Below the pieces are notes generated by a model that saw only the letters and a program-made list of their open reading frames with translations, had not been told where the DNA came from and did no database searches. Positions 2,067 to 52,953 of a stretch of 53,402 nt of DNA are shown here, piece after piece. How positions within the stretch are numbered: position 1 is the stretch's first letter; the number at the start of each line of letters is the position of its first letter. Made by a program: the position numbers and the translations under genes. Source of the stretch: a virus; IMG/VR virus record IMGVR_UViG_3300046472_000072, positions 1 to 53,402 of that record; one strand, written 5' to 3'.

Positions 2067-2717
2067 TCACGCGACTTTGAAGCTCTTGTTGACCTGATCC
2101 GCAATCAATCGTGCCAACTCGACGTGTTCCTGTTGCGTAACACCCTCCTCAAGTCGCACGTCGAGATAGTGAATCCACGAGCGAATCGTGCCATTGAAGT
2201 ACGCACGCGACATAGTGTTGCCTTCTGGAAGAATTACTCGGGCACACTCTAGTGCTATTCCTCGTTCGATGGCTTCCGCATACTTGGTCTTAACAAGCGT
2301 AAGAATCTCTTCCTGGGAATCACGCCACCACTGTTTCAGGTCTTCGTTATCCGTCTGCAAACTGTTCTGGCGATTCTTATCATCTTGCAGACGGGCTTCA
2401 CGAATCATAAAAGCGTTACCGAGTTCATTCACGTTCTGGTAACGCTGGCTAAATTCTTGTGGGCGCAAGCTCCAGTGGCGCAACAGTTGACGCATGATGT
2501 CACGTGGTGCCTCCGCCTCAACAACACAGTTAGCCATATCCAGCGGAGACCAGTGGCGCATACGCTTCAGGTAGTCAATCAGCTTCTGCGCTGTGTCCAT
2601 GTTCATTTGGTTCTTTGGATTGCTAACCCTAGCGCAATAGGCGATTAGGTCTTTTGCGTCTTCCATGCCAGTGCCGTCTACAGGCGTCGTAACTGCAATC
2701 AGTCGTGCTTTAAACAT
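2067..2717 (-). CDS. thyX: Flavin-dependent thymidylate synthase ThyX
   Basis: ThyX makes dTMP from dUMP using methylene-tetrahydrofolate, NADPH and FAD, supplying thymidylate for phage DNA synthesis. The 216-residue length fits the family. The signature lies at about residues 80-90 and continues EFSQRY, as in phage ThyX proteins; further family features include RSWIHYLDVR and QQEHVELA near the C-terminus. The usual RHR is RHW here (third position Trp), a noticeable variation in the FAD/dUMP-binding motif. The ATG at 2717 has an internal AAGGAAGAG ribosome site and overlaps the end of the adjoining endonuclease gene by eight bases. Confidence 0.9.
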   Translation of the reverse strand: MFKARLIAVTTPVDGTGMEDAKDLIAYCARVSNPKNQMNMDTAQKLIDYLKRMRHWSPLDMANCVVEAEAPRDIMRQLLRHWSLRPQEFSQRYQNVNELGNAFMIREARLQDDKNRQNSLQTDNEDLKQWWRDSQEEILTLVKTKYAEAIERGIALECARVILPEGNTMSRAYFNGTIRSWIHYLDVRLEEGVTQQEHVELARLIADQVNKSFKVA

Positions 2718-3249
2718 ACTCTTCCTTGGTACTTTCATAATTCTCTAACACAAATAAGACCCTGTGATCTAGCAGGTCATGGTATTTATCAGCCAGAATT
2801 TTTGCTGTCAAAATTTTGTGTGCTACATATGCGATTCTCGCTTGTTTTGGTGTATCGTATGACCCTAGATATATGTTTTCGTTGGCAACCTTACATTGGG
2901 CTACATACTTCCCAGTACGCTTAAAGCACGTAACCCCAACAGGTAGACCATTAGACATATACGCTTCACTAGTGGCCCCCGAGAAAAACATGTTCACTTC
3001 TCTAGGAACAAAGACACATAAATCTTCGGAGTACACTTTGTTGCCGCGCTTTAGTATGTCTTTGTCCAGTTGAAAATCTTTGATACTGAATCCAGCCTGC
3101 TGATGGCACCAAGCCCGGAAGTAGGATAGGTTTGAAAAGTTTTCAGACATCGAACAACCACGGTATGTGGGTTTCTTTGACTGATAGTAGTCCCGACACC
3201 TCAGCCTCATGTTATCCCATAAGGTTCTACACCTGTCACGTTCTGTCAC
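2710..3249 (-). CDS. HNH/AP2-type homing endonuclease
   Basis: A 179-residue protein of the phage HNH-AP2 type. The N-terminal half has the LDKDILKRGNKVYS and CVFVPREVN landmarks of phage HNH homing endonucleases. The C-terminal 60 residues (GKYVAQCKV...YLGSYDTPKQARIAYVAHK) look like an AP2 DNA-binding domain. It starts with GTG overlapping the upstream stop (GTGA), and its last codons contain the ribosome site and start of thyX. Homing endonucleases are often found next to thymidylate synthase genes, which supports the call. Activity is not proven by sequence. Confidence 0.8.
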   Translation of the reverse strand: MTERDRCRTLWDNMRLRCRDYYQSKKPTYRGCSMSENFSNLSYFRAWCHQQAGFSIKDFQLDKDILKRGNKVYSEDLCVFVPREVNMFFSGATSEAYMSNGLPVGVTCFKRTGKYVAQCKVANENIYLGSYDTPKQARIAYVAHKILTAKILADKYHDLLDHRVLFVLENYESTKEEYV

Positions 3250-3557
3250 CCAACCTCCGTCTCAACATCATCATAAACTTCTTCATACACAACAGCGATT
3301 TTCTGCCCAGCAGCCTCTTTCAACTTCACAGAAAAGTTGCTCGCCACAGAGCCCACACCTTCAACGAAATCCAAATCGTACTGTGCCAGTTGCCTTGCAA
3401 CATACGCGCACAGATTGTTCAGCTTCTCGTCCAGGGTCTCCCCCTCAAGCTCCCACATGTACGATTCAAACTCGTTCACAAACTCTTGTGTGAGAATGTC
3501 GGGCCGAAGCTCAATCTCATACTCCTTTTCAATTACTACTTTGACGGTTTTCTTCAT
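3246..3557 (-). CDS. Hypothetical protein, 103 aa
   Basis: A 103-residue charged protein opening with a beta-like MKKTVKVVIEKEYEIEL segment and continuing acidic. ATG at 3557, shared with the upstream stop (TGATG), is preferred over a GTG one codon earlier. Not recognised. Confidence 0.7.
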   Translation of the reverse strand: MKKTVKVVIEKEYEIELRPDILTQEFVNEFESYMWELEGETLDEKLNNLCAYVARQLAQYDLDFVEGVGSVASNFSVKLKEAAGQKIAVVYEEVYDDVETEVG

Positions 3558-3736
3558 CACGTCTCCCTTTCCCGAATAACCACCTCATATCGCTCTGCAC
3601 ATCCTTCGCAGATCACCTTCCAATCGCCCAATCGTAAGCCATGCTTCGGATACTCTACAAAGCAATAGTCCAGGTTGGAGTCGTAGAAGGTTTTGCAATC
3701 GCAGATGTCGCAGAGCCTGTAGTCAGCCGCTGCCAT
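3557..3736 (-). CDS. Small putative zinc-binding protein, 59 aa
   Basis: A 59-residue protein packed between two genes: its start overlaps the upstream stop as TAATG and its stop overlaps the next start as TGATG. It has CDICDC near residues 9-14 and CEGC near 45-48, two cysteine pairs spaced as in a small treble-clef or zinc-ribbon fold. Metal binding is inferred from cysteine spacing only. Confidence 0.65.
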   Translation of the reverse strand: MAAADYRLCDICDCKTFYDSNLDYCFVEYPKHGLRLGDWKVICEGCAERYEVVIRERET

Positions 3737-4050
3737 TATACAGCCTCCCAGCTCACAATAGTTTTCGTAACAACCTTCTCAACACGCTTCACTTGGCTGA
3801 TGAACGGCTCACCATAGTACCAATCAGTGTGGTAGCCGCCAGAGCGGTTGTTGTCAAGTTGGAAGAAGTTACCCTCCTCGTCCGTGACAATCGTCGTGCA
3901 GTTTTGGTACTTGTGGTCCTGCACCCAATCGCCCTCTTCAACGACTGTCAGGTTGAACTCTTCAGGAAGGTTGTCAATGTCGTAGTAGCCGCAACCATAC
4001 TCATCCATGCAATACTCGTCCAGTGCTGCTGTAAGTTGTTCTAGCGTCAT
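3736..4050 (-). CDS. Hypothetical protein, 104 aa
   Basis: Acidic, tyrosine-rich 104-residue protein (MTLEQLTAALDEYCMDEYG...). It is coupled to both neighbours by overlapping start and stop codons. No recognised domain. Confidence 0.7.
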   Translation of the reverse strand: MTLEQLTAALDEYCMDEYGCGYYDIDNLPEEFNLTVVEEGDWVQDHKYQNCTTIVTDEEGNFFQLDNNRSGGYHTDWYYGEPFISQVKRVEKVVTKTIVSWEAV

Positions 4051-4444: not shown

Positions 4445-4876
4445 CTAAGTTAATTTACGTTCCCGGCAGAACACCTGCCTACCCACCACCTTGTCACACT
4501 GCATACGCTTTGCCCAAGACGGGTGGATGTCCTTGCGATAATAATGCGTGTAGTCTTCCGTTAGTACTGCGCGCATTCTACGTGCCTTATGGAATCTTGT
4601 CAAGAACTGAGAATCATCTTTCCCAAGTTTCGTAAGATTCATACCACGTTTGTAAAAGCTGAATTGGTGAGGAGACTTAACTACACGACAGGGGCTTACT
4701 CCTTGCCGCCTAGCTCGATTGATCACCACCTGCTGCACTGCCCGCATTCCTTTCAGGCTTTCGCCCCTGGCTTCTGCAAAGACTGCTGCTTTGGTGCAAA
4801 CTTCGTCAGAGGCTACAGCAGAGTGTTGCTGAGCACTGACTAGCATTAGCGCAAGCAGCAGCTCTGTGCCACTCAA
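4445..4876 (-). CDS. SleB-like cell-wall hydrolase
   Basis: The middle of the protein (AEARGESLKGMRAVQQVV, INRARR, SPHQFSFY) matches the Hydrolase_2/SleB family that cleaves peptidoglycan, including the conserved catalytic Glu of the EARGE motif. Families of this type serve as phage endolysins, so it may act in host lysis. The N-terminus is hydrophobic (TELLLALMLVSA), possibly a weak signal segment. The TTG at 4876 is chosen because it overlaps the upstream stop as TTGA and follows GGAGGGGAAGG; a GTG at 4891 is the alternative. Confidence 0.8.
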   Translation of the reverse strand: MSGTELLLALMLVSAQQHSAVASDEVCTKAAVFAEARGESLKGMRAVQQVVINRARRQGVSPCRVVKSPHQFSFYKRGMNLTKLGKDDSQFLTRFHKARRMRAVLTEDYTHYYRKDIHPSWAKRMQCDKVVGRQVFCRERKLT

Positions 4877-5121
4877 GCCTTCCCCTCCCACACCACCTTA
4901 CATCCCTCGAAAGGAACTACACAGCCCATGTAGATGTGCTCACCAAAAATCTGCATGATGTGCCAGAGGGAATCGCGTAGGACATCGCCTTCAGCTTTGT
5001 AGCGCATTACTTGGCCTTCGTATAGACCTTCGAATCGTCGCTCGTAAGCGTTGTAGATTTCCACTCCGCGAGCATTGAGGACAACTTCTACGTGGTCGTT
5101 CAGGTTGATTTCGTGTTTCAC
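4873..5121 (-). CDS. Hypothetical protein, 82 aa
   Basis: An 82-residue protein (MKHEINLNDHVEVVLN...), likely soluble. Its ATG overlaps the upstream stop as ATGA and it is coupled to the hydrolase gene downstream. Not recognised. Confidence 0.75.
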   Translation of the reverse strand: MKHEINLNDHVEVVLNARGVEIYNAYERRFEGLYEGQVMRYKAEGDVLRDSLWHIMQIFGEHIYMGCVVPFEGCKVVWEGKA

Positions 5122-6910: not shown

Positions 6911-7606
6911 ATGAAACAAGTAATTGCAAGGATTTCGCCAATCACCAATACTCCGGTAATCTTCGATGTTGATTCGCGCAAGACTGGAGATGGACGCCTG
7001 AAAGCCTACCTCGATGGGAAGGATGTCCTCGTAGGGTATGACTTTTACATGAACACCGAGCACCTTCCGCAAGATCAGGCACTGAAAATCGCACGAGCTT
7101 ACGCCCAACATGCGGGCATCCCCGAGCATGAAATTATGGTTCGCCAGAGGTTCCCGAAGACTACCACTGGCAAGCGCAAGACCCATGACGCTGCGCTGAA
7201 GCTGGTTGAGAAAACTGATGAGAAGGTTGCAGACAAGCCTGAGACGCTTCAGCAACTTGCACAGGAAGTCCACGACCAGCATACGAAAGAGAAGGCTCAG
7301 AAGGAGTCCAAGAAGGCTGAGCCGAAGAAGGAAGTTAAGGTAGAGAACAAAGCAACCTCCGCCAACCCCGAAGGTGCAAAGGTTGAGCAACCGAAGCGCA
7401 GGCAGTATAACCGTAAGAACACGAAACGTTCTGAGGCAGCAATGTCTCGCTATTTGAAAGAACTTGGAAAAAATTCAGCAGTGTCGGAGACGTTGCTTGA
7501 GGCGGCTGCACCTGGACCCGGTGTGACCCCTGCTCAAGTGGATGAGGCAAAACTGAAGCTCGGCATGGCGATTGCTGAAATTTTGATGAAGTTTAATGTT
7601 CTGTGA
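6911..7606 (+). CDS. Lysine/glutamate-rich hypothetical protein, 231 aa
   Basis: A 231-residue protein with a folded-looking N-terminus (MKQVIARISPITNTPVIFDV, about 1-90), a long charged, probably coiled or disordered middle (about 90-160, many KKAE/KKE repeats), a basic stretch (QPKRRQYNRKNTKR) and a helical C-terminus. The basic tract suggests nucleic-acid contact, but no family is recognised. AAGGAG precedes the ATG. A hairpin terminator follows, and the next gene converges on it. Confidence 0.75.
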   Translation: MKQVIARISPITNTPVIFDVDSRKTGDGRLKAYLDGKDVLVGYDFYMNTEHLPQDQALKIARAYAQHAGIPEHEIMVRQRFPKTTTGKRKTHDAALKLVEKTDEKVADKPETLQQLAQEVHDQHTKEKAQKESKKAEPKKEVKVENKATSANPEGAKVEQPKRRQYNRKNTKRSEAAMSRYLKELGKNSAVSETLLEAAAPGPGVTPAQVDEAKLKLGMAIAEILMKFNVL

Positions 7607-8684
7607 GATGGTGAGCCTCTCTGTTTGGAGAGGCTTCCTCTGCGCTGAGCAGGGTATATCCATTCACTTCCTTCATGGCACCTCTGGCGAACCGGTAAAC
7701 CTGTGTTTTGGTGCAGTTTAGTATGGCAGCAATGTCCTCGGCTGATCCCCTAACAACATCCCCAGTGGGGATGTTGTGTAAGGTGTAAAATCCGTTCTTT
7801 AGAGGCTTCTTGCGTTCCTTTTTCAGTCTAGGATCGTCCTCAAGAGTTGAATTAAGGCAGAAATCTCCGCATTTTACCATCTTACCTTTCAGCACGGCGA
7901 AAACACTACCCGCTGGTAGGCTGTATTCCTCGATCAATTGTCTACTCGTCTTGTGCAGGACTTCCCCTGTAGAAATTCTTCTAAACTCTCTGAGTATGGC
8001 GGGCCTATGATTCCAATCGTCTGTACTGGCCATGCAGTAACCTTGTGTAAACTTCACCTCTCCATCTACAATTCTGTTTACATAAGTAATAGGTATGTCT
8101 GCAAATACGCTAAATTCCTTCCTAGTCATCTGGTAAGTCTCGCCAGAGACGATATGCTTAAACATATGCAGAGTGCTGTCTAGTACATTAGGGACCGCCA
8201 TGTTTGATACTGCCATACAAACGCCTTTAGATGTTGTTATTTGCCCCAAAACCAGCCTCGCCACGTCGTTCCTAGTAAGGCCAAATTTTTTCTTGGCGTC
8301 ATCTCTGGTTCCGACCAAAACTTCGCCTGTTCGTAAATCTCTGAACTCATACTTCTTGAAGTCCTTCCTTTTCGCAAGAAACCTGCGAACCGCTTCTTCC
8401 TTAACCCTTGCATACATCTTTCTATTCTTAACTACTGTCCTTCCATCTCTTGGAATGAGCATTGCTTTGGCTGCGTACCACAGCTCGTCAGTGTCGTATG
8501 CCTTAGCTAACAACAAGTGCGCCATAAAGTGGTCTTCCACAGTAAGGTAAACCAAGTTCTCTGGCTCATCCCCTCCTCCCATGCATCTTGCAACGATATG
8601 GTGCCTCTCATAGTACACACCTTCCAGCTTCGGCATCATCTTCCTGTGCTCAATCAACTCATTGTAGATGCGCAGGTAATCCAT
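7593..8684 (-). CDS. HNH homing endonuclease with C-terminal NUMOD-type repeats
   Basis: A 363-residue protein. The HNH nuclease domain is near residues 25-60 (YYERHHIVARCMGGG, then ENLVYL and the helical HFMAHLLLAKAY). Four repeats of about 55-70 residues follow, each with a (S/T)GE or (S/T)GD turn and a small helix-turn-helix; these are NUMOD-type DNA-binding modules typical of phage homing endonucleases. It lies antisense to the surrounding early genes and is the second gene of a cassette whose first gene stops in a TGATG overlap with this start. A homologous cassette lies at 18.2-19.4 kb. Confidence 0.85.
   Translation of the reverse strand: MDYLRIYNELIEHRKMMPKLEGVYYERHHIVARCMGGGDEPENLVYLTVEDHFMAHLLLAKAYDTDELWYAAKAMLIPRDGRTVVKNRKMYARVKEEAVRRFLAKRKDFKKYEFRDLRTGEVLVGTRDDAKKKFGLTRNDVARLVLGQITTSKGVCMAVSNMAVPNVLDSTLHMFKHIVSGETYQMTRKEFSVFADIPITYVNRIVDGEVKFTQGYCMASTDDWNHRPAILREFRRISTGEVLHKTSRQLIEEYSLPAGSVFAVLKGKMVKCGDFCLNSTLEDDPRLKKERKKPLKNGFYTLHNIPTGDVVRGSAEDIAAILNCTKTQVYRFARGAMKEVNGYTLLSAEEASPNREAHHLTEH
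7614..7635 (+). terminator. Hairpin terminator, rightward
   Basis: AGCCTCTC-TGTTTG-GAGAGGCT is an eight-pair stem with a weak T-rich tail, just after the stop at 7606. It lies inside the 3' end of the convergent HNH gene. Confidence 0.5.
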
Positions 8685-18221: not shown

Positions 18222-19136
18222 TCAGTTTTTCCTTATTTCTTTCTTAGTTCCGGTGATCGTCTCGCCTTCAGCATTAATTAGGCGGATTGGCTTGAACTTC
18301 TCTGCCAAAACTCTCTCGTAATTTTCTGGTAGACAATACCCGAACGATGTCAGTGACTTTCCATTAGTTATATGTGAAACTGAGCTATTGTGCATTCCTG
18401 TCAACCTCATCAACTCTGGACGAGTGCCAGTTATGACTGCACCTGATTCTATGTGAACTAGCGTAAACTCATCCACGGCTTTTGTTTTCTTGGTAGGGTC
18501 AGTTCCTTCTAAATAGTATTTGCCAGCGACAAGTTTTATTCTACGTGTCAATGAGTAAATACTAGCCTCTGAGATTCCTAATTTCTCGCTCAACTCTTTA
18601 GCAGTGCCTGTATGGGTCAGGCCATCTTCAAGACTAACTATGTTGTACTTCTTGTGTTTACCGGCATTTTCTGCGTTTCCCGCCAAGCAAATACCCCTAG
18701 CAGACGCTGAGATACCTCTGACTAATTTACTCGTCTGGGAAAAATCCAACCCGTATTCCTTTTGTAGATATTCCCTTGTGGCCGTAAACACCTTACCCGT
18801 CCTCAAGTCTTCAAACTCATACTCTGTTTGGTCGGACACATAAATTGCTAGATTTCTTCTTGCGACAGCAAACATATGTCTATTCCTTATAACTCGCCCG
18901 TTTTGCGGCATCTGCATTGCAATAATGGCTCTCCACATAGGCCCGCCGTACGTCTTTGCCAGGAGGAGATGTGCGAAGTAGTGTTCTTCGTATGTTAAGT
19001 ATATAAGGTTCTCGTCGTCATCGCGTCCACCAAGACTCACAGGGTGTATGTGGTGACGTTCGTAATACTCGGAGTTCAGTTTAGGGCGGAATTTGCGACT
19101 TTCTATGAAGTCGTCATAAATCTTGTTGTAGTTCAT
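18222..19136 (-). CDS. HNH homing endonuclease with NUMOD-type repeats (cassette 2)
   Basis: A 304-residue relative of the protein at 7593-8684. The HNH domain is near residues 23-60 (YYERHHIHPVSLGGRDDDEN), followed by three full NUMOD-type repeats. A fourth begins (RLINAEGETITGTKKEIRKN) but is cut by a stop. In the -1 frame the missing part continues at once as LNVSSGFFKQPIVGKGSNNE and ends at 18157, so the fourth repeat is split by one base at an AAAAA run. Its ATG overlaps the stop of the MSRxFDY gene (ATGA). Confidence 0.85.
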   Translation of the reverse strand: MNYNKIYDDFIESRKFRPKLNSEYYERHHIHPVSLGGRDDDENLIYLTYEEHYFAHLLLAKTYGGPMWRAIIAMQMPQNGRVIRNRHMFAVARRNLAIYVSDQTEYEFEDLRTGKVFTATREYLQKEYGLDFSQTSKLVRGISASARGICLAGNAENAGKHKKYNIVSLEDGLTHTGTAKELSEKLGISEASIYSLTRRIKLVAGKYYLEGTDPTKKTKAVDEFTLVHIESGAVITGTRPELMRLTGMHNSSVSHITNGKSLTSFGYCLPENYERVLAEKFKPIRLINAEGETITGTKKEIRKN

Positions 19137-28559: not shown

Positions 28560-29015
28560 TCAAGCAGATTCTTTAGAGAGTACTGCCTTGGCCCGAACCC
28601 ATACGTTACTCACTGATTTGCTGTACCACTTTCCACCGCGAGCTGTTGCAATATTCTGGCTGTTGAGGTATTCTGCTATTGTGTCGAGAGGCATGCCCTG
28701 CTCTTTCATAGGCAAAATAATTTCGTAAATCTTCAAAGCAAACTCGTTTGCGCGTGCGGTCTGAGACTCCCGACCAAGCCTCCTGGCTTCTTCTGCGTTG
28801 GTGTGATTACCTAGTTTAACTCCACGCTCCTTCGCACGCCTCAGCCCTTCCCTCGTAAGCTCAGCATGGTTATCCCTCCGCTTCCATCCGGCGTCATGCA
28901 CTCGTTCGTGACAAGACCCACAAAGTGGGACAGTCTTAGTACCTCCTAAGCTCTGAGGGATTACATGGTGATCTTCAGTCGCTGGTGCCGCACATTCAAA
29001 ACATTCTTTTAACAT
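28560..29015 (-). CDS. HNH nuclease fused to a resolvase-type DNA-binding domain
   Basis: A 151-residue chimera. Residues 1-45 are an HNH domain (CFECAAPATEDHHVIPQSLG, then LCGSCHERVH, with paired cysteines for zinc). From about 53 to the end it aligns with the C-terminal half of the neighbouring serine resolvase: GL..AK.RGV.LGN.TN..EAR, then MK..GM....IAE..N......ATARGG.W...S. A nuclease domain thus replaces the recombinase catalytic domain on the same DNA-binding platform. Probably a homing or site-directed nuclease. CTGGAGAACT precedes the ATG. Confidence 0.85.
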   Translation of the reverse strand: MLKECFECAAPATEDHHVIPQSLGGTKTVPLCGSCHERVHDAGWKRRDNHAELTREGLRRAKERGVKLGNHTNAEEARRLGRESQTARANEFALKIYEIILPMKEQGMPLDTIAEYLNSQNIATARGGKWYSKSVSNVWVRAKAVLSKESA

Positions 29016-36399: not shown

Positions 36400-36715
36400 G
36401 TTCTGGTTGTAGCACTACTGTCGAGGTCATGAAAGCCGACGAGGGCTGACACAAATTCTCGTAACAAATTTGCCCAACAGGACAAGCTCCATCTGGGCAT
36501 ACTCCGCTTCGGCGGATTCGAGGAGAGGGCGTCTGTATGGGCGCTGAAGAGGGTCGGGAAGGAAGGTGCTGCGACTCCACCAATTATTTATAGGCTGCAC
36601 GGCAGGGATGCTGTGTGGCTTTTTGTTGTTTCAAGTTTTGTGGCGAACGGATTAGCTATCCTCTCCAGTGCTACACCACTGGATAGTCACTCTTATTAAC
36701 TCGTGTAGGAGCATT
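36400..36715. other. Intergenic stretch before the GIY-YIG gene
   Basis: About 315 bases with no gene seen. It has a TCCGC-TTCG-GCGGA hairpin (36503-36516) and a CCAGTG-N6-CACTGG hairpin near the end. No clear promoter. Confidence 0.35.
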
Positions 36716-37864
36716 ATGAGCGGAAGATTTAAGAAAGGTCAAGGGTTTATTGACTTGACCGGAGAGCGTTACGGCATGTTGACGGTACTTGAGTTTGTTG
36801 GGCAAGACAAGCACAAACGGAGTAAATGGAGATGCCAATGCGACTGTGGCGCTATCACAGAAGAATTCGGAGCTGAGATGAAACACGGAAGTGTTAAGTC
36901 TTGTGGATGTGCAATGACGTGGAAGCGACCGCGAAGGGTTGATCTTGTAGAATTTCTAAGTCGCGCCAAAGAAAAACATGGTGAAAGGTACGACTATTCC
37001 TCTGTGGAGTATAAGAATACTAGCACACATGTGAATATTAGGTGCCACGATCACGGAATTTTTGCACAGACTCCTACTCAACACTATCGCGGTGGGCAAG
37101 GGTGCCCGAAATGTGCTTACGAAGAAAAAGCAAGAGCCAAGCGCAGTAACACCGAAACTTTTGTTCAAGAGGCCAAGAAAAGAAATGGTGGTAATTTTGA
37201 TTACTCTCTTGTTCATTACAGTGATAGTCAAACTCCAGTTGAGGTCATCTGCAAGACCTGTAATACCAACTTTAAACAACGCCCCAGCGTCCATTTACTT
37301 GGTAGTGGTTGCCCAGCATGCGCGAATGCGGACAAAAAGGAACGGTATACGCTCAGCACTGAAGAGTATGTAGAAAAAGCTAAAACTATTTTTCAAGATA
37401 GTGAGTATTGTTATAAGGGCACCGTTTATACGTATTCTAAGGATAAGATTGAGGTCTTTTGCAACTGCTGCAAGTCTACCTTCAAGATTAGGGCAGATGT
37501 CCACTTACGCGGCCACGGGTGCCCTTGTAAAACAACTCATGGATTTGATTTTACCCGTCCTGGGACGCTCTACATCTTAGAGTGTGGACCTATTACTAAG
37601 ATTGGAATTACATCACATGAAGTGAGCCGAAGAATCAAGGACATCTCAAGGTCTTACGGCGTAAATTTTAACCTTGTGACGGAGTTTGAGGTAGAAGACC
37701 CTAGACTCTGCTCAGATGTGGAAACAGAGATGTTACGGTATCTTAGGAGTTGTTATAAACAGCCGAACGACAAATTCGATGGTTATACGGAGTGCTTCTA
37801 CGATGTTGACCAACGTGACCTTATCAACAGGTTGAAAATTAAGCTGGAGGTATATGACCAGTAA
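36716..37864 (+). CDS. DUF723/GIY-YIG homing endonuclease 1, adjacent to the terL intron
   Basis: A 382-residue protein. Residues 1-65 form a zinc module (GERYGMLTVLEFVGQ, CQCDCGAI, SCGC). Three DUF723-type repeats follow, each with a YDYS-type stretch, a V.I.C..HG or V.CK.C segment and a terminal GCPxC. The C-terminus (TLYILECGPITKIGITS ... LRSCYKQPNDKFDGYTECFY) is a GIY-YIG-like MUG113/T5orf172 nuclease. Its last 11 bases overlap exon 1 of terL and carry the terL ribosome site. It probably cuts intron-less terL and so spreads the neighbouring intron; inferred from position. Confidence 0.85.
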   Translation: MSGRFKKGQGFIDLTGERYGMLTVLEFVGQDKHKRSKWRCQCDCGAITEEFGAEMKHGSVKSCGCAMTWKRPRRVDLVEFLSRAKEKHGERYDYSSVEYKNTSTHVNIRCHDHGIFAQTPTQHYRGGQGCPKCAYEEKARAKRSNTETFVQEAKKRNGGNFDYSLVHYSDSQTPVEVICKTCNTNFKQRPSVHLLGSGCPACANADKKERYTLSTEEYVEKAKTIFQDSEYCYKGTVYTYSKDKIEVFCNCCKSTFKIRADVHLRGHGCPCKTTHGFDFTRPGTLYILECGPITKIGITSHEVSRRIKDISRSYGVNFNLVTEFEVEDPRLCSDVETEMLRYLRSCYKQPNDKFDGYTECFYDVDQRDLINRLKIKLEVYDQ

Positions 37865-39608
37865 GAAAAAAGTTTATGGCCCTGCAAGTGAGAAGCAGCG
37901 CCTTATTCTAACAGATCGAACTACAGACGTAATTTTGATCGGCGGTGGTAGGTAATCCAGTGCCTCCGCTTTACCAACAAACCCTTAATTCGGTGGAACT
38001 CTCAATGAGACAATACCGAGCGAAGCCTAGAAATAGGAACGTGTAACGACTAGCCGTAAGGCGTAGGCCCGAGTGGGCCGAAACAGGGTTCAGCCGCTCA
38101 GCGGTGGAAGATATAGTCTGCTCCTTACAGTGATGTAAGGCTGCTTAATAAGCGGGATAAGATTAACGACCTTATCCGAACACTACCTCATGGCTGGTGG
38201 GGGTAAATCAGCAACATGTTTGATCAAAAACCTTGACGGGGTTAATGACCCGCACTTCAGATGCACAATTTTCCGTCGCACATACCCTGAGCTTAAGCGT
38301 CAAGGTGGACTAATTGACGAAAGCAAATCTATCTATTCGTCTTGGTCTGGGGAATACAAATCTCAAGCCATGGTATGGAATTTTAAGTCTGGAGCATCTA
38401 TTGCTTTCTCAGCGATCGCCTCCGATGATGACTTAGGCTCCTGGCAAGGTTCCCAACTTACCCGCGTGCTGATCGACGAAGCTGGTGACAAGTGGACAGA
38501 GAAGCAGGTTTTGTTTCTTCTGTCACGTATCCGCTCTGCGCATAGCAAGATTTACCCGCAGATGATACTTTCATGCAACCCGGATATTAATTCGTTCTTG
38601 AAAAAATGGGTCGATTTCAGTCTTGGACCTGACGGTGTTCCTCTGCCGGGAACAGAGCACAGAATTCGTTGGTTTGTCACTGTAGAAAACCAAGTGTTGT
38701 GGGCGGACTCTGCTGAAGAGTGCTACGAACTCCACGGCAAGCCGCGCAATATGGTTTATGCACGAGGAATGTCCGAGGAAGAGATTAAGAAGCATTCGCC
38801 TGATAAACTCTTTATGCCGAAGAGCTTCCGCTTTATCCCAACCGGAGTATTCGACAATCCGTACCTGTTGCCGCCGAGAAACAACACGTATTTGGCGAAC
38901 CTGTTGTCTCAGCCATATGTGAATCAGTTAAGATTTTTGCATGGTTCCTGGACAGCTCGCGAAGCTGGAGAATCCTTCTTCCGCAGGGATTGGGTAGAGA
39001 TTGTTGATAAGCCACCTGTCAAGGTAACGGGACGTGTAAGAGCGTATGACTTTGCTGCATCCGAGGAGCCTAGCCACGGAGGTTCCTCAAGGGACCCCGA
39101 TTACACGGTTGGTTGCCTCATGAGCCGTGACAGCTCTGGGACTTTATTCATTGAGCATATCAGGCGGTATAGAAAACTCACGGATGGCGTCTTAAAGGAC
39201 GTTATCGAGACAGGGTACAATGATGGTGTAGAAGTGCCTGTACTGATTCCGAAAGATCCAGGTGCAGGTGGTGCAGCAGCTCACCTCTTCTTTGTTCAGC
39301 ACCTATCCGAAGCAGGACTTTCCGTAAAGACCGTGAAGGTAAGTGGACACTCTGGCAAACTCCAACGGGCACAGCCATTTTTTGCAATGGCAGAGGCAGG
39401 CAAGGTCAAGATCGTCAGGGATTCTGAAGGTGACAGGTTCGTAGAGAATATGCTGATGGAATTGGAGTATTTCACAGGTGGTCGGAATGAGAAGAATGAT
39501 CAGGTCGATGCTATCGCCGATGCTGCCAATTTCCTTATGAGGCAACAGGTGATGCCGAATTTCACACTAGCCATAAACACCCAACCCTCACCAATCCCCT
39601 CCCTATAA
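37854..39608 (+). CDS. terL: Terminase large subunit, interrupted by a group I intron
   Basis: Two exons, 37854-37949 and 38193-39608, join in frame to a 503-residue TerL. Exon 1 (MTSKKKVYGPASEKQRLILT ... DVILIGGG) has GGAGGTAT before its ATG. Splicing creates Walker A GGGAGGGKS across the junction. Walker B is RVLIDEAGD, and the C-terminal nuclease domain has YDFAASEE and KNDQVDAIADAANFL. TerL is the ATP-driven motor and nuclease that packages DNA into proheads. The ATG at 38190 is the accidental last three bases of the intron, not a start. Confidence 0.9.
37950..38192 (+). ncRNA. Group I intron (243 nt, no internal ORF)
   Basis: Exon 1 ends in T at 37949, and its last bases GCGGTGGT pair with the internal guide GCCTCCGC at 37962-37969, leaving the conserved U-G pair at the 5' splice site. 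The P7 strands GACTA (38048-38052) and TAGTC (38114-38118, within the hallmark AGATATAGTC) are present. The intron ends in G at 38192, and CCAG at 37957-37960 can pair with CTGG of exon 2 (P10). Removing it restores the terL P-loop. It should self-splice; its short length explains the lack of an internal endonuclease. Confidence 0.9.
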
Positions 39609-44139: not shown

Positions 44140-45102
44140 ATGGCACGGAAGAAGTCTCAAGAAGAGATACTTACTCTGGCGGTTCAGAAGCACAATAACT
44201 ACTACACGTACGAACATGCTGTTTACGTAGACTCTAAAACGAAGTTTCAAGTGACATGCCCTAACCATGGGCCGTTTTGGATCACTCCAAATAATCACCT
44301 ATCTGGGAAGGGGTGCTCAAAGTGTGGAGATGTTAGAACCGCATCGAGCAAACAGAAGACCACCAGCGTATTTACCAATCAAGTGGAAGAACGGTTTCCC
44401 GGTAAATACGATTTTTCGTGCACGCTGTATAAGTCCGCAAGAGCGAAAGTAGATGTCCGTTGTACGGAGCATGATATTGTTTTTCAAATTACGCCAGACA
44501 ATCTCTTAAGGGGCAAGGGTTGCCCACTCTGCGGAATCGCTTCTCGTGTCAACACAAGAAAAGCCCAATTTGATGAGATGGTTCCAGAAAACGAGCGACG
44601 ATTTGCGGAAGACATTCTGAAGGTGCATGGAGGAAGATACGAATACTTGGGTGGGTATCGAACCAAGGAGAGTCTTGTTTCTCTATTGTGCAAAGATCAC
44701 GGGGAGTTTAAACAAAAAGCGCTGGATCACATCGGAGGTTGTGGTTGTCCATCTTGTGCAGATTATGGCTTTAATCCGGCCAAATCTGGGACAGTGTACG
44801 TTATGCAAGATGGCGAACTCGTAAAAGTTGGTATTACAAACCGCGCTGCAAACATTCGGTTAAGGAATATCAAACGATCTTCTTCGCGTAATTTTTCAGT
44901 AGTTTGCAGTTTTAACTTTGACCAAGGCCACACTGCGCGAGATATCGAAACCGCACTCCTCCGTGAACTACGTTCCCAGTATGAACAACCTACAGAGAAG
45001 TTCGACGGCTCCACAGAATGCTTCTACAACGTCAACCTTCCAGCCCTCCTCGCCCGAATTGAAGAACTAATTAAGGAACACACATGCCTCTCATCGATTT
45101 GA
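44140..45102 (+). CDS. DUF723/GIY-YIG homing endonuclease 2
   Basis: A 320-residue relative of the proteins at 36716 and 51784. Three zinc-containing DUF723-type repeats (ending GCSKCG, GCPLCG, GCPSCA) are followed by a GIY-YIG-like domain (TVYVMQDGELVKVGITN ... LRSQYEQPTEKFDGSTECFY). It has its own terminator-bounded promoter, so it is expressed apart from the capsid gene, and its last 19 bases overlap the next connector gene. Confidence 0.85.
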   Translation: MARKKSQEEILTLAVQKHNNYYTYEHAVYVDSKTKFQVTCPNHGPFWITPNNHLSGKGCSKCGDVRTASSKQKTTSVFTNQVEERFPGKYDFSCTLYKSARAKVDVRCTEHDIVFQITPDNLLRGKGCPLCGIASRVNTRKAQFDEMVPENERRFAEDILKVHGGRYEYLGGYRTKESLVSLLCKDHGEFKQKALDHIGGCGCPSCADYGFNPAKSGTVYVMQDGELVKVGITNRAANIRLRNIKRSSSRNFSVVCSFNFDQGHTARDIETALLRELRSQYEQPTEKFDGSTECFYNVNLPALLARIEELIKEHTCLSSI

Positions 45103-51783: not shown

Positions 51784-52953
51784 ATGCCAGCAAAACTATC
51801 GCAAGAAGAATACCTCAAACGTTGTGTTGAAAAGCATGGAAATAAGTATGGACTGCAACACATAGAGTACGCCCGAACATCTTCCAAGGTCAAGGTAGAG
51901 TGTTATGAACATGGTATTTTCCACGTACACGCAGGAACGTTTATGCGCGGTACAGGGTGTGCCAAATGCGCCTACGAGTACAACGGATTGAAACACAGAG
52001 TTACGCAGGAAGATTTTATAACGCGCAGCAGAGAGATTCACGGCGAAGCTTACGACTACAAGACCGTTGTCTACACTAAATCAGATGTAAAAGTAAAGAT
52101 TTGGTGTAATGCTTGTGCCAATGAGTTCGAGATGACCCCTGAAGCGCATCTCGTGGGGCAGGGTTGTCGAACATGCGGATACAAACGGAATGGTCTTGCC
52201 AAGAGGGCAGACTTCGCAAAGTTTGTAGAGGAATCTCGGTTTCATCACGGCGACAAGTTCAGCTACGAGCATGTTGAAGGCGTTTGGACAGGCATCCACA
52301 CCAAATTCGACCTTTACTGTCACGTGCATCAAGAGTGTTTTGTGGCATACGCTTCTACGCATGCTAAAGGTGCTGGCTGTCCCAAGTGCGCAAAGATCGC
52401 AGGTGGGATCAAGAATAGAAGTGATACTGAGACTTTCATCCAGCAAGGAAAGAAAAAGTTTGGGGACGCTTTCGATTATACCAAGGCAGACTACGTTAAG
52501 AATAACAAGAAGGTTACGCTCCGCTGCACGGAGCATGACAAGTGGTTCAACGTCACGCCAAACGTCCACTTGCACCCAGATAACACCCACGGAGGTTGCC
52601 CACAGTGCGTACAGGCTGGATATAAAATAGCGAAGCCTGGTTATCTGTACGTTCTACATGTCGATGAACTGACTAAGGTAGGAATCACAAACAGACAACC
52701 GGAAGTCCGTTGCAAGTCTGTTGCCAGAGAATCGAGTAAGAGTTTTGAAGTTCTCAAGGCATACTATTTCAATAATGGCATGCTCCCTAGAGAGATTGAG
52801 ACAACATTGTTGAGGGAGCTAAGAGCGCAGTACAAGCAGCCTCTGGAACGTTTTGATGGCTCTAAAGAAACCTTCTACAACGTCAACCTCGCATCCCTCC
52901 TAAACCGCATCGAAGAATTAATAGCAACACAAACAGCGGCACTAGCCGCGTAA
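51784..52953 (+). CDS. DUF723/GIY-YIG homing endonuclease 3
   Basis: A 389-residue member of the same family as the proteins at 36716 and 44140. Four DUF723-type repeats end in GCAKCA, GCRTCG, GCPKCA and GCPQC. The GIY-YIG-like domain (YLYVLHVDELTKVGITN ... LRAQYKQPLERFDGSKETFY) is at the C-terminus. It is inserted between the tail tube and tail-assembly chaperone genes. Start at 51784 with AAGAAAGAG upstream. Confidence 0.85.
   Translation: MPAKLSQEEYLKRCVEKHGNKYGLQHIEYARTSSKVKVECYEHGIFHVHAGTFMRGTGCAKCAYEYNGLKHRVTQEDFITRSREIHGEAYDYKTVVYTKSDVKVKIWCNACANEFEMTPEAHLVGQGCRTCGYKRNGLAKRADFAKFVEESRFHHGDKFSYEHVEGVWTGIHTKFDLYCHVHQECFVAYASTHAKGAGCPKCAKIAGGIKNRSDTETFIQQGKKKFGDAFDYTKADYVKNNKKVTLRCTEHDKWFNVTPNVHLHPDNTHGGCPQCVQAGYKIAKPGYLYVLHVDELTKVGITNRQPEVRCKSVARESSKSFEVLKAYYFNNGMLPREIETTLLRELRAQYKQPLERFDGSKETFYNVNLASLLNRIEELIATQTAALAA

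What the first reader, a model, noticed from the sequence alone, without database searches (positions are those of the whole stretch)
37854..38195. Group I intron splits the Walker A codons of the terminase gene
The sequence shows a short exon 1 that ends in ILIGGG, 243 bases with stop codons, and an exon 2 that starts AGGGKSA. P1 pairing with a U-G at the splice site, P7 strands, a P10 pairing and a terminal G are all visible. The insertion point is the ATP-binding loop, about the most conserved spot of terL, which is typical of intron homing sites. At 243 nt with no ORF it is small for a phage group I intron.
Basis: partly seen in the sequence, partly recalled or inferred. Interest (0 to 1): 0.9.

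Follow-up and report, generated by a model that had tools for sequence, protein, structure and literature searches.

The report
Self-splicing intron in phage packaging gene
A small self-splicing RNA intron interrupts the DNA-packaging motor gene of this phage exactly at the codons for its ATP-binding loop; it is real and conserved, it sits at the same spot as the intron shown to splice in cholera phage ICP1, and relatives show that this spot is invaded again and again by mobile elements.

Summary
Exon 1 of terL is 37854-37949, the intron is 37950-38192 (243 nt), and exon 2 is 38193-39608; splicing restores ILIGGG|AGGGKSA. RF00028 matches at 61.3 bits, E 3.5e-13. Intronless relatives at 88-90% aa identity carry the uninterrupted motif, which fixes the junction independently. 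In ten homologous introns 46 of 58 helix pairs show compensatory changes, and none of 500 shuffles reaches that. The exon-intron helices P1 and P10 covary with synonymous glycine and alanine codons. It is therefore a conserved, very probably active group I ribozyme, subgroup IA2 by its P7.1/P7.2.

It is not a new kind. ICP1 terL has an intron at the same codon boundary, with splicing shown (PMC10448857) and the same layout: a GIY-YIG endonuclease gene overlapping the terL start codon. What this analysis adds is that TerL Walker A is a recurrent target: 17 mapped or apparent cases, at least four adjacent insertion points, at least 9-10 gains or losses on the TerL tree, and three relatives with an intron plus an intein in one P-loop. 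Collaborative homing by the upstream endonuclease is plausible but not shown (phylogeny-aware p about 0.3).

The parts
37854..37949 (+). terL exon 1 (32 codons, ends ...ILIGGG|)
   Evidence: spliced translation continues into TerL; relatives L002-L007 encode the same N-terminus without interruption.
37950..38192 (+). Group I intron, 243 nt, phase 0, no ORF; in-frame stop at its second codon (AGG TAA)
   Evidence: RF00028 61.3 bits; boundaries from intronless relatives; 46 of 58 pairs covary across 10 homologues.
37950..37971 (+). 5' end of the intron with the internal guide sequence: CCAGU (P10) and GCCUCCGC (P1)
   Evidence: P1 8 of 9 positions paired with U.G at the splice site; P10 5 bp with exon-2 GCUGG.
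38048..38052 (+). P7 5' strand GACUA
   Evidence: position 99 of the intron; P7 98% paired, 3 of 5 pairs covary.
38114..38118 (+). P7 3' strand UAGUC
   Evidence: position 165 of the intron.
38053..38079 (+). P7.1 and P7.2 hairpins, typical of subgroup IA introns
   Evidence: P7.2 100% paired, all 5 pairs with changes on both sides.
38193..39608 (+). terL exon 2 (AGGGKSA... to stop); Terminase_6N and Terminase_6C
   Evidence: Pfam; intact P-loop on joining. The ORF caller starts it at 38190 because the intron ends in ATG.
36668..37864 (+). Free-standing GIY-YIG (MUG113/T5orf172) endonuclease gene with DUF4379 zinc-finger repeats; likely start at 36716; its stop codon overlaps the terL ATG by 11 nt. 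Candidate homing partner of the intron
   Evidence: Pfam MUG113 and DUF4379; absent from HEG-less relatives L002, L004, L006, where a noncoding stretch runs straight to terL; same position in L015, L065, L069, ICP1.

Best explanation
This is a group I intron (subgroup IA2 by its P7.1/P7.2) that entered terL between the third Gly codon and the Ala codon of the Walker A motif. It folds in the pre-mRNA, and a guanosine bound in P7 attacks after the U that pairs with G in P1. P10 then aligns exon 2, and ligation restores GGGAGGGKS so that a normal TerL is made. Translation of unspliced RNA stops two codons into the intron. The intron carries no nuclease gene of its own. The most likely means of spread is cutting of intronless terL by the free-standing GIY-YIG endonuclease encoded just upstream, followed by co-conversion of endonuclease gene and intron (collaborative homing). 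Shown by computation: fold, boundaries, covariation, exon-intron coevolution, recurrent gain or loss. Inferred: splicing in this phage. Inferred and weaker (about 0.5): that this endonuclease cuts this site. The confidence given is for the intron identity and splicing.
For: RF00028 61.3 bits; L015 intron E 3.8e-8. Intronless relatives at 88-90% aa have uninterrupted GGGAGGGKS. Covariation: 89.7% of cells paired, 46 of 58 pairs with compensatory change, 0/500 shuffles; slid versions only about 40% paired. P10 position 3 is U-A in the window and ICP1, A-U in L015, L065, L066, and C-G in L069, following the synonymous Ala codon; P1 follows GGC/GGT. Identical site and layout in ICP1, where splicing was shown by RNA-seq, RT-PCR and Sanger sequencing (PMC10448857). 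An in-frame stop lies in the first two codons in 7 of 15 introns, binomial p 0.00018 before allowing for relatedness. Sporadic distribution: 10 changes on the TerL tree, at least 9 on starred branches; the window's nearest relative L002 (90%) lacks both intron and HEG.
Against: No RNA data for this phage. The homing step is weak: the window HEG is closer to that of intronless L003 (40%) than to that of intron-bearing L015 (29%). Several HEG-bearing phages lack the intron (L003, L009, L016, L075, L086, L093, L096, L119). The phylogeny-aware test of HEG against intron gives median p 0.29, although the naive Fisher test gives 0.012 one-sided. Window and L015 introns (75%) are no more alike than their exons (74%), so recent transfer between these two is not indicated.
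Confidence: 0.93

Rival explanations
1. The intron is a resident ribozyme spreading or being lost independently, and the upstream endonuclease merely occupies the same hot spot (a HEG turnover relic), so the two do not move together.
For: HEG and intron are not congruent (L003, L009, L119 carry a HEG only; L050, L057, L066-L068 carry an intron with no HEG at terL). The window and L015 introns diverge at the rate of the exons. PMC10448857 proposes HEG turnover as an alternative for ICP1.
Against: The intron needs at least 9-10 gains or losses on the TerL tree, so something moves or removes it often. HEG and intron co-occur more than expected by a naive count.
Confidence: 0.35
2. A dead or degenerate intron: the insertion disrupts terL and the record is of a defective phage.
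For: No transcript data for this phage; L057 has an atypical 3' end (intron ending in A).
Against: Strong compensatory change across homologues, P1 and P10 tracking exon wobble changes, and open, well-conserved exons.
Confidence: 0.03
3. Not an intron: an assembly or sequencing artefact, or an unrelated structured RNA.
For: The record is a metagenomic contig.
Against: The same intron at the same boundary is in the independent contig L015 and in at least five other phages, including ICP1; RF00028 above its gathering score.
Confidence: 0.01

Closest known systems
Vibrio phage ICP1 terL intron (ORF129/ORF128 with HEG ORF130; PMC10448857)
   Same: Same codon boundary in Walker A (GGx|AGGGKS), similar size (262 vs 243 nt), no intronic ORF, similar 5' end (AAATAATCCAGTG vs AGGTAATCCAGTG), same P10 (CCAGU/GCUGG), T5orf172-type HEG whose stop overlaps the exon-1 start.
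   Different: Different phage group (TerL about 29% identical); HEG only 24% identical and in ICP1 carries a CapR domain. Splicing is proven for ICP1 and predicted here.
Bastillevirinae terL introns (SIOphi, phiAGATE; PMC11878797) and Shewanella phage KASIA terL intron (PMC8541194)
   Same: Group I introns in terL shown to splice.
   Different: The Bastillevirinae introns are longer on average (802 nt) and the KASIA intron carries an HNH gene. Their position in TerL was not checked here.
Group I introns in terL/DNA maturase B of T7-like phages (Vibrio VEN, Salmonella SE29, Klebsiella ZH4 and Henu2_3, Edwardsiella WCT72P1)
   Same: Related intron sequence by blastn in the same gene.
   Different: Inserted about 190-400 codons into terL, with an ORF inside or after the intron.
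[quoted passage not shown]
   Same: ORF-less intron beside a free-standing endonuclease gene.
   Different: Cleavage by this endonuclease is untested, and the endonuclease family differs from F-CphI (GIY-YIG against Endo VII-like, PMC6083498).
P-loop inteins of mycobacteriophage TerL (PMC5050341)
   Same: Mobile elements in the same Walker A motif.
   Different: Protein splicing between Lys and Thr/Ser, against RNA splicing between Gly and Ala; the two occur together in L066-L068.

Membership tests
Group I catalytic intron (RF00028) | Match to the covariance model above the gathering score | tested here: met
   61.3 bits against 50, full model 1-253.
Group I catalytic intron (RF00028) | P3-P9 core with P7 and P3 forming the pseudoknotted core | tested here: met
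   P3 100%, P4 93%, P7 98%, P9 100% of cells paired, with compensatory changes.
Group I catalytic intron (RF00028) | P1 with U.G at the 5' splice site, P10, and a terminal G | tested here: met
   the intron ends ...CTCATG.
Group I catalytic intron (RF00028) | Removal restores the host reading frame, and intronless alleles exist | tested here: met
Group I catalytic intron (RF00028) | Self-splicing with a GTP cofactor | not testable with these tools
   Needs in vitro transcription or RT-PCR; shown in vivo for the ICP1 equivalent (PMC10448857).
Subgroup IA2 | P7.1 and P7.2 between P7 and P3' | tested here: met
   Two hairpins; P7.2 100% paired with 5 of 5 pairs covarying, P7.1 weaker at 65-90%. 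The subgroup rule itself is from general knowledge.
Collaborative homing locus | ORF-less intron next to a free-standing HEG | tested here: met
   HEG 36668-37864 overlaps the terL start; no ORF in the intron.
Collaborative homing locus | HEG and intron are gained and lost together | tested here: inconclusive
   Naive one-sided Fisher p 0.012; independent pairs sign test median p 0.29.
Collaborative homing locus | HEG cuts intronless but not intron-bearing terL | not testable with these tools
   Requires a cleavage assay.

The most novel reading that the evidence does not exclude
TerL Walker A codons are a general invasion site in tailed phages. Different nuclease families upstream of terL (GIY-YIG MUG113 or HNH-AP2 type) each serve ORF-less introns at slightly different positions in the same P-loop, and the endonuclease gene also supplies the start-codon context of terL. 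The intron would then act as the resistance allele of a nuclease weapon aimed at the packaging motor of co-infecting phages.
Probability: 0.25. Interest if true: 0.65.

Novelty: new member of a known kind. Interest (0 to 1): 0.4.

Why it matters
The window gives a clean, covariation-supported intron in the active site of an essential phage enzyme, with intronless sisters at 90% identity for comparison. The relatives show the ATP-binding loop of TerL being hit repeatedly at neighbouring codons by introns and by inteins. That makes it testable whether upstream free-standing endonucleases drive this, and whether they are used against competing phages, as shown for an intron endonuclease in PhiPA3 (PMC11620839). 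It also warns annotators: 8 of 15 such introns end in ATG or TTG directly before exon 2, so gene callers report a near-full-length TerL without its first 32 residues and miss the intron.

Tried and rejected
Exact 19-base intron core pattern across IMG/VR: only L015 found. TerL of L065 in genome contigs: no relatives. A HEG query from the window alone gave mostly shared zinc-finger hits, so an alignment was used instead. The idea that HEG type dictates intron site was rejected: MUG113 HEGs go with sites a, b and d, and HNH-AP2 HEGs with a, b and c. A naive Fisher association of HEG with intron was weakened after more HEG-bearing intronless loci were found and was not significant with phylogeny. 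RF00028 at the gathering score misses several of the homologues (L015, L050, L057, L058, L065, L069), so absence of an Rfam hit is not absence of an intron. No known Rfam family in the noncoding stretch upstream of the HEG. A GGUAA/UUACC pairing near the 5' end of the window intron is not kept in L015 and was not counted. The 3' splice sites of L057, L068 and L077 are not settled.

Full report
Observation. The window encodes a TerL split by 243 nt. Exon 1 (37854-37949) ends ILIGGG, the intron is 37950-38192, and exon 2 (38193-39608) begins AGGGKSA. Rfam's group I model matches 37921-38140 with 61.3 bits, E 3.5e-13, the only such hit in the record. Close TerL relatives from IMG/VR (L002-L007, 88-90% aa) have the same protein with uninterrupted ...GGGAGGGKS..., which fixes both splice sites.

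A working ribozyme by comparative evidence. L015 (84-85% aa) has a homologous 244-nt intron at the same boundary; Rfam scores it at E 3.8e-8, below the gathering score. Alignment-based scans and ICP1 gave further cases; fifteen boundaries were fixed, all 212-262 nt, each restoring an intact P-loop. On a plain MAFFT alignment of ten introns, the core helices form standard pairs in 89.7% of cells and 46 of 58 pairs have a change on both sides. No shuffle of 500 reaches this, and sliding the partners by 1-3 columns drops pairing to about 40%. P1 and P10, which cross the intron boundary, follow wobble changes in the exons: GGC/GGT glycine codons in P1, and GCT, GCA or GCC alanine codons paired as U-A, A-U or C-G in P10. 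P7.1 and P7.2 hairpins place it in subgroup IA2, by general knowledge of the class.

Precedent. In Vibrio phage ICP1 (NC_015157) exon 1 lies in the 33-codon ORF129, exon 2 is ORF128, and the intron lies at the same codon boundary with the same P10 sequence. Its splicing is proven by RNA-seq, RT-PCR and Sanger sequencing, and its T5orf172 endonuclease beside exon 1 was discussed as collaborative homing or HEG turnover (PMC10448857). Other terL introns are known in Bastillevirinae (PMC11878797) and in Shewanella phages (PMC8541194). In T7-like phages they lie much further into the gene. The present intron is therefore a new member of a known kind.

The neighbour. ORF 36668-37864 is a GIY-YIG (MUG113) endonuclease with DUF4379 zinc-finger repeats; its stop overlaps the terL ATG. 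In HEG-less relatives (L002, L004, L006) a noncoding stretch ending GGCTTTTTGTTGTT runs straight into the terL start. The window keeps that stretch at 36400-36635, followed by the HEG. The HEG is thus a separate insertion at the terL start, and it now carries the upstream context of terL. HEGs at this place also occur with the intron in L015, L065, L069, L127, L077 and ICP1 (MUG113/T5orf172 type) and in L041, L043, L058, L063 (HNH-AP2 type, named from sequence resemblance; only L043 has a Pfam AP2 match). They occur without it in L003, L009, L016, L075, L086, L093, L096, L119, L120. Within TerL-ascertained loci the naive one-sided Fisher test gives p 0.012; independent phylogenetic pairs give median p 0.29. 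Collaborative homing is the likeliest mechanism of spread but is unproven.

Recurrent invasion. On a 42-row TerL tree the intron label needs 10 changes, at least 9 on well-supported branches; the window's nearest relative, L002, lacks it. Insertions fall at four neighbouring boundaries: GGG|AGGGKS (window, L015, L057, L058, L065, L066, L067, L069, ICP1), GG|GAGGGKS (L041, L050, L063, L127, probably L068), GGGAG|GGKS (L043) and GGGA|GGGKS (L121, probably L077). L066, L067 and L068 in addition carry an intein with Hint and LAGLIDADG domains between Lys and Thr/Ser of the same motif (domains checked in L066 and L068), the classic P-loop intein site of mycobacteriophage TerL (PMC5050341). Group I introns and inteins are known to favour conserved sites (PMC2814812).

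Verdict. The finding is confirmed and the first interpretation supported; novelty is low because of ICP1. Interest is moderate because of the clean exon-intron coevolution and the repeated invasion of one active-site loop by several kinds of mobile element.

Noticed in passing
L066:1705-3000, L067:1027-2322, L068:1734-3000: A group I intron and an intein (Hint plus LAGLIDADG_3) sit a few codons apart in the same TerL Walker A motif (GGG|AGGGK|T/S): RNA splicing and protein splicing are both needed to make the P-loop.
   Followed up: partly
window 36400-36635; L002 about 4690-4880, L004, L006: Noncoding stretch upstream of terL conserved among close relatives, ending in a terminator-like hairpin with TTTTTGTTGTT; no Rfam match. 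Possibly a structured RNA or a terminator ahead of terL.
   Followed up: partly
window 44140-45102 and 51784-52953: Two more MUG113/T5orf172 GIY-YIG endonuclease genes in the same record, one just after the capsid gene; relatives (L081-L083, L085, L089, L090, L095) also have such a gene just after the capsid gene.
   Followed up: partly
window 7593-8684 (-), 18222-19136 (-), 28560-29015 (-), 2710-3249 (-): Further likely HNH or AP2-type homing endonuclease genes, so the phage is rich in them.
   Followed up: no
L063 near 3618-3885, L120 near 3376-3656, L123 1578-1810, L124 3304-3536: A second insertion of about 230-280 nt in terL near residue 124 (Walker B, DEAGDK region), with a group I match in L063; L120, L123 and L124 have a HEG-like ORF ending at the terL start.
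   Followed up: partly
L016:1123-1140: TerL Walker A reads AGGDKS instead of AGGGKS on a short contig whose terL is also split in inverted order; probably an assembly error.
   Followed up: no
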